A DNA stretch of 47,449 nucleotides from Clostridia bacterium (GTDB lineage Bacteria; Bacillota; Clostridia; DSM-8532; SZUA-474): NCBI GenBank assembly GCA_003251775.1, contig QKEK01000037.1, positions 1 through 47,449 of the forward strand. The letters run 5' to 3'. Under the pieces are notes generated by a model. It saw only the letters and a list, made by a program, of their open reading frames with translations, was not told the origin of the DNA and ran no database searches. The position numbers and the translations under genes are program-made. Numbering within the stretch: the first letter of the stretch is position 1; each line of letters opens with the position of its first letter. Positions 679-29,848 of the stretch are shown piece after piece.

Positions 679-817
679 TTGTAAGAACAGCAAGGTATTA
701 TTATATTAGCAACAAGGTTCTTAAGCTGTCGGCTATCTCTTATAGCACTAATGGCATAGATAGCCTAGATTAAATTAACAATAAACATATATCAGATAAG
801 TGATAAGGAAGGTAAAA

Positions 818-933
818 GGTTGAAAGAAAATGACCAATTAAAACGAGTTAAATAGACAAGGTATAAATATATGATTTTCTTTCAACCCAGATTTGTGCCT
901 GAAGAAAGGGATGGACATAAGTATGAAGTGTAA
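818..933 (+). promoter_or_regulatory. Leader element copy 1: 14-bp inverted repeat (818-831 / 874-887) plus leader micro-ORF 871-933 (MIFFQPRFVPEERDGHKYEV)
   Basis: ggttgaaagaaaat...attttctttcaacc; closely similar element on the minus strand at 29452-29563 upstream of another gene. Confidence 0.7.
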
Positions 934-2068
934 TACTTTAATCAATTTACTAAGTGAATACAATGCACAAAACATAATAGCAATTAAGCAATTAAACCCT
1001 GAAAGGGTAATCTTTCTTTCTGGAAGAAGTGAGCTTGAAAATGATATTTATGGTAACCTTAAAGCTATAATCAAAGAAAGAGGCTATCAAGGTAAAATTA
1101 TACGTGAGGTGTATACCGCGGGCAAGCTAGAAAGCATAAGTAGCATTATTAACAGGTACAAAACAAATGAAACAGTAATTAATCTGTCAGGTGGAGGGAG
1201 ACTGTCAAAGCTGTTAGCAAGACAGGCTGGTATCAAATATGACATTCAATGTGTATATATTGATTTATCAGAACAGAGTATGCTTTTACTTAAAAACAAC
1301 GGAGAGCTTGAGGTGATAGCATCTGATTTACCGGACATAACAGTTAGCGATATTATTGATATAGCTGGAGGAGAGGTTATAACACAAGCCTCTGATATCT
1401 ATGGAAAATCAATATATTTGGAATATATTGATTTTTTGGTCAATAACTATGATATGTGGAGCGAGGTAAGAGTTATTTTAAAAGATAAAAAACGTATACG
1501 TCATAACTACAATTATCCGTATAATATTATGATAAGTTTAAATAGGATTAAAAGAGAAACAATGATTTTGCTCTTTAATTTTGCAAAGAGTCTAAAGCAA
1601 TACAGGTTAGCAACGAATTATTTTTCTGTTGAAAATCAGCTTGAGATCAGATTTTCTAATAGGGAGGCAAAAAACTTTATATGTATTGTAGGAAATTGGC
1701 TTGAGGTTCTCACATATAAGGTTGTAAAGGAGATACGTGGGATAGATGATGTGAAGAGTGGTGTAAGATTTTTATGGGATGAAGATACGCCCTTGGTAGA
1801 AAATGAATTGGATGTTATCGCATCATCGCAGTCTATTCTTGCTTGCATTTCTTGTAAGGATACCTATCAATATGACACAGCAGAGCTAAACGAATTAGAA
1901 ATATACTCTCGGAAAATAGGTGGAGATCTTGTTAAAAAGGTACTTGTTGCCACATTGGAACCAGAGAATAGAATTGTTATGGATAGAGCTTATGAGATGG
2001 GAATCAATATTATTATTTTTGATGGAAATATAGAACAATTTAAAAAAAGACTAGGTGAGGTAATTTAG
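911..2068 (+). CDS. CARF domain plus PD-(D/E)XK nuclease, Card1/Can2-like (DUF1887-type) protein
   Basis: N-terminal Rossmann-like CARF pattern (VINLSGGGRLSKLLARQAG); C-terminal GNWLEVLTYKVVKEIRGIDDVKSGVRFLWDEDTPLVENELDVIASSQSILACISCKDT matches restriction-like ENELDV...ISCK motifs. ORF track opens at 893 (TTG); ATG at 911 or 923 is more likely. Confidence 0.75.
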   Translation: MDISMKCNTLINLLSEYNAQNIIAIKQLNPERVIFLSGRSELENDIYGNLKAIIKERGYQGKIIREVYTAGKLESISSIINRYKTNETVINLSGGGRLSKLLARQAGIKYDIQCVYIDLSEQSMLLLKNNGELEVIASDLPDITVSDIIDIAGGEVITQASDIYGKSIYLEYIDFLVNNYDMWSEVRVILKDKKRIRHNYNYPYNIMISLNRIKRETMILLFNFAKSLKQYRLATNYFSVENQLEIRFSNREAKNFICIVGNWLEVLTYKVVKEIRGIDDVKSGVRFLWDEDTPLVENELDVIASSQSILACISCKDTYQYDTAELNELEIYSRKIGGDLVKKVLVATLEPENRIVMDRAYEMGINIIIFDGNIEQFKKRLGEVI

Positions 2069-18698: not shown

Positions 18699-18726
18699 AA
18701 TAATAAACCTGTTAGATAATAAAAAA

Positions 18727-19067
18727 AGGCAATGAAGAGGAAGAGTAGAATAAAAACAGTCTACAGAGAGAAAGGGTCAGCGGCTGTAAGCCTTTTCAGA
18801 TAAGATTATTTGAAAACCACCTTGGAGCCATTCATTGAATATTAGTTGTTGTTATTGTTGTGCAAACAACAAGATTCTTAAGTTGTCAGCAATCTATGAT
18901 AGCGTCAATAACTTAGGATTCATATTTTAAAAAATATGGCAGCAATTGTACTAGGTGATGTCGGGTCGTTACGTTATAAACGATATGAGTGATAGCATTA
19001 GTTGTGCTATAATTTGGGTGGAACCGCGAGATACTCTCGTCCCTTTTGGGATGGGAGTTTTTTATTG
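18727..19067 (+). promoter_or_regulatory. T-box riboswitch leader (threonine-type)
   Basis: Stem I closing caatgaa/ttcattg, cagagagaaagggtc distal region, ACC triplet near 18816, T-box TGGGTGGAACCGCG (19015-19028), terminator actctcgtcccttttgggatgggagttttttt. Confidence 0.92.
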
Positions 19068-28219: not shown

Positions 28220-29464
28220 CTAGGACTTGTTAATGAACTCAACCTCAAAGTCTTGAAAGCGTTCTCTCCACTTTTCAATAGACATTGGAACCTTTTGAAT
28301 ATATTTTGCATTAGTATAGACCTTTACTGTATTATTAAGAGGTTGTATTACTGCTGCACATATTTTATCATCAGGCAAAAACATTATAATTGACTCATTA
28401 GTTCCAGCTAGTCCTCTAACCCAATGCACTTCAACAATAGCCTCAAAGTCATCTAGATTCTCTGTTGTACAACACTTTTGTGAAGTGTCTAAAAATAGAG
28501 CTATATCCTCTCCAACTAATAGCTGTAACTCTCTTTCTTGTTCTTTGGTCTTGACTATTCCTGTACTTAGAGGGGTAAATTCTTCATTCAAATCTCCTTT
28601 TTTAAAGTCTCCACTAAAGCCAACACCAGCTCCTGCATAGAACTGTGCTTCATTATTTTGCTCTAATACTATAACTCCATTATTAAGAGTAAACAATAGT
28701 TCAGCACCAGTATCTATGTCATAGAATCTAGCTTCTAAACTGCTAATGCTAGCTGTTCCGCCGATAAACCCTTGATATCCTCCACTAAAAGCATCTATCT
28801 GAAAATCAAAATTCTTATCAGTCTCATTAAAGATAACTAAAGTTGCTGGATCAAACCTTCCTGAATTTATTCTTCTCCATTCTCCGCTCCATGTGCTTTT
28901 TTCACTTATTCCATTTATTATATTAAGCTCAAAAGGTAGGATTTCTTTAGTATTCTCATTTATCCAGCTGCCTTCAATTCTGATGCCAGGAGTATACCAT
29001 CCATCAAATGTACCAGCTATAGAACCATCTGCACCATATTCTGTAATTCTTATCATTCTGTTAATTTCAATAGTACCTTTAAGCTGGATATTAGTTTTAT
29101 ATTTATTATAAAAGTAAGTACCCTCAACCTCTCCTTCATATATTTTAATACTCATATGTATTTCTAAATCACCTATAGTACCTTTTAAATCTATATAGTC
29201 TTCTGTTACTGTATCAGATAAATTAATACTTTCTGATTCTGCTTGTGCCGAGAGGTTATTATCTGTAGGTTTTTCAGTCGTAGTGCTTTCAATGCTATCT
29301 TGAACATACTCAGATATATTAATATCTTGTTTTACGCTTTCTTTGATTGTGCTATTTCCTTCTTTGTTGTTACTACTACTTAAATTGCTACTACATGAAA
29401 CTAGGCATAGTCCAACAATACTAAATATTAACACAATAATTATTTTTTTCATTATTATGTTCAT
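28220..29464 (-). CDS. Putative lipoprotein of unknown function
   Basis: MKKIIIVLIFSIVGLCLVSCSSNLSSSNN lipobox. ORF track start 29482; ATG at 29464 or 29452 more likely. Confidence 0.75.
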   Translation of the reverse strand: MNIIMKKIIIVLIFSIVGLCLVSCSSNLSSSNNKEGNSTIKESVKQDINISEYVQDSIESTTTEKPTDNNLSAQAESESINLSDTVTEDYIDLKGTIGDLEIHMSIKIYEGEVEGTYFYNKYKTNIQLKGTIEINRMIRITEYGADGSIAGTFDGWYTPGIRIEGSWINENTKEILPFELNIINGISEKSTWSGEWRRINSGRFDPATLVIFNETDKNFDFQIDAFSGGYQGFIGGTASISSLEARFYDIDTGAELLFTLNNGVIVLEQNNEAQFYAGAGVGFSGDFKKGDLNEEFTPLSTGIVKTKEQERELQLLVGEDIALFLDTSQKCCTTENLDDFEAIVEVHWVRGLAGTNESIIMFLPDDKICAAVIQPLNNTVKVYTNAKYIQKVPMSIEKWRERFQDFEVEFINKS

Positions 29465-29563
29465 TCCTCTCTTCAGGCACAAACCTAGGTTGAAAGAAAA
29501 TCATATATATACCTTCTCTATTCAAATCATTTCAATTGGTTATTTTCTTTTAATCTTTCAACC
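29421..29563 (-). promoter_or_regulatory. Leader element copy 2: inverted repeat 29488-29501 / 29542-29563 plus micro-ORF 29504..29421 (MIFFQPRFVPEERNEHNNEKNNYCVNI)
   Basis: Reverse complement aligns closely with 818-925; agaagg SD 7 nt before the micro-ORF ATG. Confidence 0.7.
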
Positions 29564-29848
29564 TCGGTAATAAGCCCTAAAAATAAATTTACTTAACTTA
29601 ACATAAACCATTATATCACAAGATAATGTAAAAAAGTGTATTGAAGTTATCAAAAAGGAGAGGTATGATTTGTTGCAACACAAAATAAGCATATTAACAT
29701 GGTTTAAGGTAGTAAATATTATTGCATTAACAAATTAGATATAATAAAATGAAATAGAGATTATTGAATTTTAAGAAAGTGTAAACAAAGACCTTGTTGA
29801 ATAGGTCTGTGCTTTTGCTAACGCTCTGGTGGGAGGATATTTATTGGA

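What the first reader, a model, noticed from the sequence alone, without database searches (positions are those of the whole stretch)
818..933. Shared hairpin leader with conserved micro-ORF upstream of a CARF-nuclease gene and a distant lipoprotein gene
Directly visible: 818-925 (+) and 29452-29563 (-) align closely, including ggttgaaag...attttctttcaacc arms, accaattRaaaYga, aaggtat(a)atatatgattttctttcaacc and the gene-start region. Each copy encodes a micro-ORF, MIFFQPRFVPEERDGHKYEV (871-933) and MIFFQPRFVPEERNEHNNEKNNYCVNI (29504-29421). Across the first 13 codons the only differences are synonymous third positions (CCC/CCT, AGA/AGG, GAA/GAG). The micro-ORF has an SD-like aagg/agaagg and overlaps the main gene start out of frame, suggesting translational coupling or a leader-peptide switch gated by the hairpin. 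This would place an orphan CARF nuclease and a secreted lipoprotein under one undescribed leader.
Basis: partly seen in the sequence, partly recalled or inferred. Interest (0 to 1): 0.75.

Follow-up and report, generated by a model that had tools for sequence, protein, structure and literature searches.

The report
Repeat inserted just before start codons
A 103-base hairpin sequence has been copied to about a hundred places in this bacterium's genome, nearly always into the few bases between a gene's ribosome-binding site and its start codon, where it appears to supply a replacement ribosome-binding site; I found no described mobile element with this target.

Summary
The two leaders are real. 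They are two of about 100 copies of one dispersed ~103-nt repeat in this 3.4 Mb genome. It is absent from 32 same-order genomes and from 291 sampled genomes of the class. It is not a leader specific to a CARF nuclease and a lipoprotein. Nearly every copy lies in sense orientation directly before a start codon: of 109 hits with a 3' end, 69 stop exactly 2 nt before it (67 ATG, 2 TTG), and most others are followed by a further unit. Upstream of full copies sits a native Shine-Dalgarno sequence. Removing positions 1-103 in silico restores textbook ribosome-binding sites (G at -9 in 74%), with A at -4 in 89% against 38% in genes without the element. The implied target is SD...AA^NNATG. The element carries its own SD (AGAAAGG). 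Tail-only relics keep that SD and the 2-nt spacing while hairpin and micro-ORF have decayed. Tandem units come from different subfamilies, suggesting repeated insertion into a regenerated target. The 14-bp stem is strongly conserved. The micro-ORF is broken in many copies, without a reliable coding signature. Best reading: a small, probably non-autonomous mobile element that inserts into the SD-AUG spacer and replaces the ribosome-binding site. Its mobilising machinery is unidentified.

The parts
805..812 (+). native Shine-Dalgarno (AAGGAAGG) of the Card1-like gene, now separated from its start codon by the element
   Evidence: sequence; virtual excision gives AAGGAAGGTAAAAGTATG
818..920 (+). 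element copy 1 (positions 1-103)
818..831 (+). 5' arm of the 14-bp stem
874..887 (+). 3' arm of the 14-bp stem
871..933 (+). micro-ORF MIFFQPRFVPEERDGHKYEV, overlapping the main gene out of frame; selection on it not shown
903..909 (+). element-borne SD (AGAAAGG), 13 nt before the ATG
   Evidence: sequence; retained in relic copies
923..2068 (+). downstream gene, Card1-like nuclease (CARF region N-terminal by inference from the family)
   Evidence: Pfam PF09002 E=5.6e-14
29562..29565 (-). probable native SD (GAGG) of the lipoprotein gene
   Evidence: sequence; excision join
29455..29555 (-). element copy 2 (5' tip diverged: GATTAAAAG)
29466..29472 (-). element-borne SD (AGAGAGG) of copy 2
   Evidence: sequence
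29421..29504 (-). micro-ORF of copy 2
28220..29452 (-). downstream gene, predicted lipoprotein (MKKIIIVLIFSIVGLCLVSCSS...), no Pfam match

Best explanation
The feature is one copy of a small, probably non-autonomous mobile element (~103 nt). A 14-bp hairpin sits at its 5' tip and an extended Shine-Dalgarno at its 3' end. It inserts in sense orientation into translation initiation regions, between a gene's own SD and its start codon, after AA and 2 nt before ATG. Insertion moves the native SD ~100 nt away, but the element's SD (AGAAAGG) lands at a workable distance, so the gene probably stays translated. Because the element's end (GAAAGG..ATAA NN ATG) resembles a new target, further copies insert behind it and make tandem units. 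Over time the 5' part decays and the gene keeps the 3' end as its ribosome-binding site. Shown by sequence: dispersal, position, orientation, native SD remnant, target preference, stem conservation, relics. Inferred: mobility as the cause, and use of the element's SD. Not known: the enzyme, and whether the target is read on DNA or on mRNA.
For: Copies: 83 core matches against 0 for the reversed control pattern; 109 hits with a 3' end. Position: 69 end exactly 2 nt before a start codon, where chance for ATG is ~2% per site. Native SD: strong SD upstream of 36/62 full copies against 7.7% in control windows (p~1e-24). Excision restores canonical RBSs and shows A at -4 in 31/35 against 28/73 (p=5e-7). 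Motif alone is not enough: AANNATG occurs 251 times in non-start intergenic DNA against 89 at starts in the fetched DNA, yet only ~4 of 109 copies lie away from a start. Tandem partners: in most of 8 pairs at least one unit is closer to a copy elsewhere (up to 0.98) than to its partner. Overlapping operon junctions are split, e.g. C14, C326, C76, C242. Stem: 1.1-1.7 changes per column against ~5 elsewhere. Relics: 129 tail matches against 12 for the control; most of those read keep the 2-nt spacing. Recent copies are up to 98% identical.
Against: No autonomous parent or transposase-borne copy found. No empty-site allele was seen directly, because no genome of the same family is held; empty sites are virtual. 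No expression data show that the element's SD is used. The stem has no covariation, so its role as a DNA or RNA structure rests on conservation alone. Native start codons used as controls were called by a crude SD rule.
Confidence: 0.8

Rival explanations
1. A shared cis-regulatory leader (hairpin plus leader peptide) controlling a regulon, spread for regulatory reasons.
For: Always 5' of genes in sense; stem strongly conserved; micro-ORF has an SD-like AGAGAAGG 9 nt before ATG; mild synonymous excess in columns 71-92 (39 observed, ~24 expected after scaling the ratios).
Against: Much of the synonymous excess comes from two columns (71 and 89); start lost or frame stopped in many copies; no regulatory theme among genes; no covariation; relics keep only the RBS; a native SD lies directly upstream.
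Confidence: 0.08
2. As a mechanism within the best explanation: DNA-level transposition of a REP/PATE-like element by a resident HUH (Y1) transposase whose target motif happens to be the SD-spacer-ATG sequence; copies elsewhere are rarer by selection.
For: Hairpin at the tip, no target duplication, and left flank AA resembling the element's 3' end AA, as cleavage sites do in the IS200/IS605 family (family knowledge); one intact REP-associated tyrosine transposase-like gene in the genome.
Against: That transposase scores just below the NCBIfam cut-off (73.6 against 80) and its homologues occur in 15 same-order genomes without the element; one of them (G012) holds a different repeat, GGGGACGGAGRCTTTGACTCAT, not tied to start codons; no second subterminal hairpin; AANNATG alone does not explain the position.
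Confidence: 0.35
3. As a mechanism within the best explanation: RNA-level insertion. The element's RNA is joined to mRNA at the ribosome-bound initiation region and copied back into the genome by a reverse transcriptase.
For: Position fixed to the AUG to the nucleotide while the SD distance varies; ATG starts over-represented (67:2 against a rough 73:31); sense orientation; near absence from non-start intergenic sites; a group II intron RT gene is present.
Against: No ribozyme or Rfam similarity; 5'-truncated copies mostly lack an adjacent native SD, which fits later decay better than incomplete reverse transcription.
Confidence: 0.25
4. Spread by homologous or microhomology recombination between ribosome-binding regions, without a dedicated mobility system.
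For: Mini-units GGTTGAAAGAAAGGAATGG.. look like deletions between AAGAAA repeats at positions 7-12 and 85-90, so such recombination occurs.
Against: Native SD and spacer are left intact upstream of the element, and only ATG is shared with the target on the right; too little homology to explain ~100 precise insertions.
Confidence: 0.1

Closest known systems
REP/REPIN sequences with RAYT transposases
   Same: ~100-nt hairpin repeat, tens to hundreds of extragenic copies, no coding capacity of its own for mobility; a RAYT-like gene is in the genome
   Different: No GTAG-type foot recognised, no link to the RAYT gene; fixed position before start codons; carries an RBS
Small interspersed repeats BOX, RUP, ERIC, NEMIS (MITE-like)
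   Same: Short dispersed hairpin elements that can lie in 5' untranslated regions
   Different: Those families, as I know them, sit at many intergenic positions; here no terminal inverted repeat, no target duplication, and an almost exclusive SD-AUG target
IS200/IS605-derived elements (PATEs)
   Same: No target duplication; left flank resembles the right end; hairpin near an end
   Different: Hairpin at the extreme left tip, no second hairpin, no matching insertion sequence identified
Rickettsia palindromic elements
   Same: Mobile hairpin repeats tolerated at genes
   Different: Those insert in frame inside coding sequence; this one inserts before the start codon
Group IIC introns
   Same: Mobile RNA-linked elements with a functional-site target (terminators)
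   Different: Here ~103 nt, no intron domains, target is the ribosome-binding region

Membership tests
MITE | terminal inverted repeats at both ends | tested here: not met
   Inverted arms are at 1-14 and 57-70; the 3' end GGACATAA is not complementary to the 5' end
MITE | target-site duplication | tested here: not met
   Left flank dinucleotide does not follow positions 102-103 of the same copy (e.g. C306, C14, C293, C15); inspection
REP/REPIN | partner RAYT gene linked to the repeats | tested here: inconclusive
   RAYT-like gene at C302, no copy detected within the 7 kb fetched around it
IS200/IS605 PATE | subterminal hairpins at both ends matching a resident insertion sequence | tested here: inconclusive
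   Only one hairpin; no copy near the Y1 transposase genes fetched, ends of those insertion sequences not mapped
Leader-peptide attenuator | conserved translated peptide with alternative terminator/antiterminator | tested here: not met
   Start lost or frame broken in many copies; no terminator found within the element; the only one predicted nearby lies inside the gene at 996-1008
Riboswitch, T-box or other Rfam family | match to a described covariance model | tested here: not met
   No match at gathering threshold at either element copy; only chance-level hits
Group II intron | ribozyme domains and ~400+ nt length | tested here: not met
   Unit is ~103 nt; no Rfam match

The most novel reading that the evidence does not exclude
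A mobile genetic element whose target is the translation initiation region itself, recognised as a functional site (SD plus AUG, possibly on ribosome-bound mRNA), and which survives by handing the host gene a new ribosome-binding site.
Probability: 0.35. Interest if true: 0.92.

Novelty: new variant of a known kind. Interest (0 to 1): 0.8.

Why it matters
Mobile elements that use safe sites are known (tRNA genes, terminators, attTn7), but I know of none, and found none in the literature searches that ran, that enters between Shine-Dalgarno and start codon. If right, it shows a lineage in which around a hundred genes, many encoding core metabolism, have had their ribosome-binding site replaced by the same element. 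That is a natural experiment in rewiring translation initiation, and it raises a testable question: does the insertion machinery read the start codon on DNA or on the ribosome?

Tried and rejected
A leader specific to CARF and lipoprotein genes: rejected by copy number and gene diversity. Peptide selection on the micro-ORF: weak signal driven largely by two columns, frame often broken. RNA covariation: none beyond shuffles. In-frame N-terminal extension from TTG at position 76: no synonymous bias in that frame. Promoter in the element: none by consensus scan. Target duplication: absent. Known RNA family: none. Presence elsewhere: no full copies in 60 relatives (four short weak hits), 32 order genomes, 291 class genomes, GTDB scan (two short chance-like hits), plasmids and phages; IMG/VR hits are two contigs carrying the same loci as this genome and two with a short unrelated match. 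Analogous start-codon repeats in two same-order genomes sampled at ~350-400 kb: none. Linkage to reverse transcriptase or Y1 transposase genes: no copy detected near them.

Full report
Observation. The two copies at 818-925 (+) and 29452-29563 (-) are as described, with 14-nt complementary arms and the MIFFQPRFVPEER micro-ORFs. The hairpin folds better than shuffles. The gene after copy 1 is a Card1-like nuclease by Pfam; the gene after copy 2 reads as a lipoprotein without a Pfam match.

Copy number and distribution. A blastn search of the window's own genome (3.42 Mb, 326 contigs) returned ~50 near-full copies. A core pattern with up to 3 mismatches gave 80-83 places and none for the reversed control. 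A covariance model built from 62 full copies extended this to decayed copies. After fetching those regions, a profile search gave 109 hits that include the 3' end. Mean pairwise identity of full copies is 85%, with pairs up to 98%, so some are recent. No full copy was found in 60 relatives, 32 same-order genomes, 291 genomes of the class, plasmids or phages. The GTDB scan gave two short chance-like matches. IMG/VR contigs with full copies carry the same loci as C168 and C232 of this genome. No genome of the same family is held, so the true range below that level is unknown.

Position. Of the 109 hits, 69 end exactly 2 nt before a start codon that opens a long frame (67 ATG, 2 TTG) and 5 more within 0-4 nt of that position. 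Of the other 34, about 25 are followed at that position by another unit, a short unit GGTTGAAAGAAAGGAATGGACATAA, or a degenerate one; about five more have an ATG within a few nucleotides; about four are not at a start (read by eye). Domain profiles begin near residue 1 of many of these proteins (for example HemC, PyrD, GatB, PanB, LysC), which supports the assigned starts. All of these are in sense orientation.

Native ribosome-binding sites split by the element. A strong SD motif lies just upstream of 36 of 62 full copies against 7.7% of control windows. Removing positions 1-103 in silico from 35 full copies that abut an ATG gives joins such as TATAGGAGGAAGTATG, GCATGGGAGGAAAATATG and TAAGGAGCATAAAATATG, with G at -9 in 74%, close to genes without the element. 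Joins lying behind a recognised unit were left out; one (C245) escaped that filter. At the join, A is at -4 in 31/35 against 28/73 (p=5e-7) and at -3 in 27/35 against 35/73 (p=0.006). The target is therefore SD...AA^NNATG. At overlapping operon junctions the upstream gene's frame now runs into the element: C283, C14, C242, C326, C76 and C134. In C326 the excised join GAGGTAAGGGTATGA restores an ATGA overlap (my reading); in C14 removal of one base more gives TAATG. AANNATG is about three times commoner in non-start intergenic DNA than at starts in the fetched sequence (251 against 89), so this motif alone does not account for the position.

Tandem units. In most of eight tandem pairs at least one unit is closer to a copy elsewhere than to its neighbour (for example C232 unit 1 to C288 unit 2 at 0.97 against 0.84 to its partner). 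C198 is the pair that could be a local duplication. This fits separate insertions into a target regenerated by the element's own end better than local duplication in general.

What is conserved. Parsimony changes per column are 1.7 and 1.1 in the two stem arms, 4.6 in the loop and 5.4 in the tail. The stem is 96.8% paired, but compensatory changes do not clearly exceed shuffles. The micro-ORF region outside the stem shows 39 synonymous, 58 nonsynonymous and 3 stop changes; columns 71 and 89 supply much of the synonymous count. In one search the start was not found in 24 of 91 copies (a simple string test, so a few of these may be misread), and where the frame is intact its stop is set by the downstream gene. 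Peptide function is not excluded in single copies, but a general leader-peptide mechanism is not supported.

Relics. The tail GAARAAAGGAATGGAYATAA has 129 genome matches against 12 for the reversed pattern. In the places read, most have lost hairpin and micro-ORF but keep the SD-like AAAGG and the two-nucleotide spacing to ATG. The simplest reading is that the host genes depend on the element's SD. Its spacing (13 nt after AGAAAGG, equal to ~10 nt from a GGAGG register by pairing to the 16S 3' end) is workable by established knowledge. This step is inferred, not measured.

Mechanism. Mobility by insertion is the best explanation of the pattern; the machinery is open. The genome holds one intact REP-associated-tyrosine-transposase-like gene and a group II intron reverse transcriptase, with no copy of the element detected near either. 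The transposase has homologues in 15 same-order genomes that lack this element, and one of those carries a different repeat not tied to start codons. I give DNA-level transposition 0.35 and RNA-level insertion 0.25 as mechanisms; these are sub-hypotheses of the best explanation, not alternatives to the pattern.

Novelty. As a class it is a small dispersed hairpin repeat, which is a known kind. Its target and its replacement of the ribosome-binding site I have not met before, and the full-text searches that ran returned nothing describing them; those searches cover only open-licence papers and specific wording.

Noticed in passing
window 18723-19047 (+): T-box leader above Rfam gathering score (116.7 bits), unrelated to the element.
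   Followed up: no
L115:2804-3580 (genome C302:13303-14079): Single full-length REP-associated tyrosine transposase-like gene; homologues in 15 same-order genomes.
   Followed up: partly
L231, L233, L217, L224 (genome G012): A different palindromic repeat, GGGGACGGAGRCTTTGACTCAT, REP-like, in a transposase-bearing relative; not tied to start codons.
   Followed up: partly
L174, L179, L186, L068: Short units GGTTGAAAGAAAGGAATGGACATAANNATG, apparently deletions between AAGAAA repeats of the full element; mostly the unit nearest the ATG, sometimes alone.
   Followed up: partly
L176 and L184 (genome C20, C3): Another two-copy repeat (GGGAGAACCAGTTGCTTTGCTTAGATAAAAGCCC...) whose end resembles the element's tail.
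   Followed up: no
L010 (genome C49:2138-3544): Three units within 1.4 kb: one before pyrD (Pfam) and a tandem pair before a gene whose protein looks like a phosphoribosyltransferase (no Pfam hit at 1e-10).
   Followed up: partly
L102, L148 (genome C242, C76): Upstream genes whose stop was displaced by insertion gain a short element-encoded tail such as VERKLPIK.
   Followed up: partly
L009 and L169/L171 (genome C168, C232; IMG/VR 3300028422): Copies lie in prophage-like DNA, including before an XkdN-like tail chaperone gene, so phages could carry the element between cells.
   Followed up: partly
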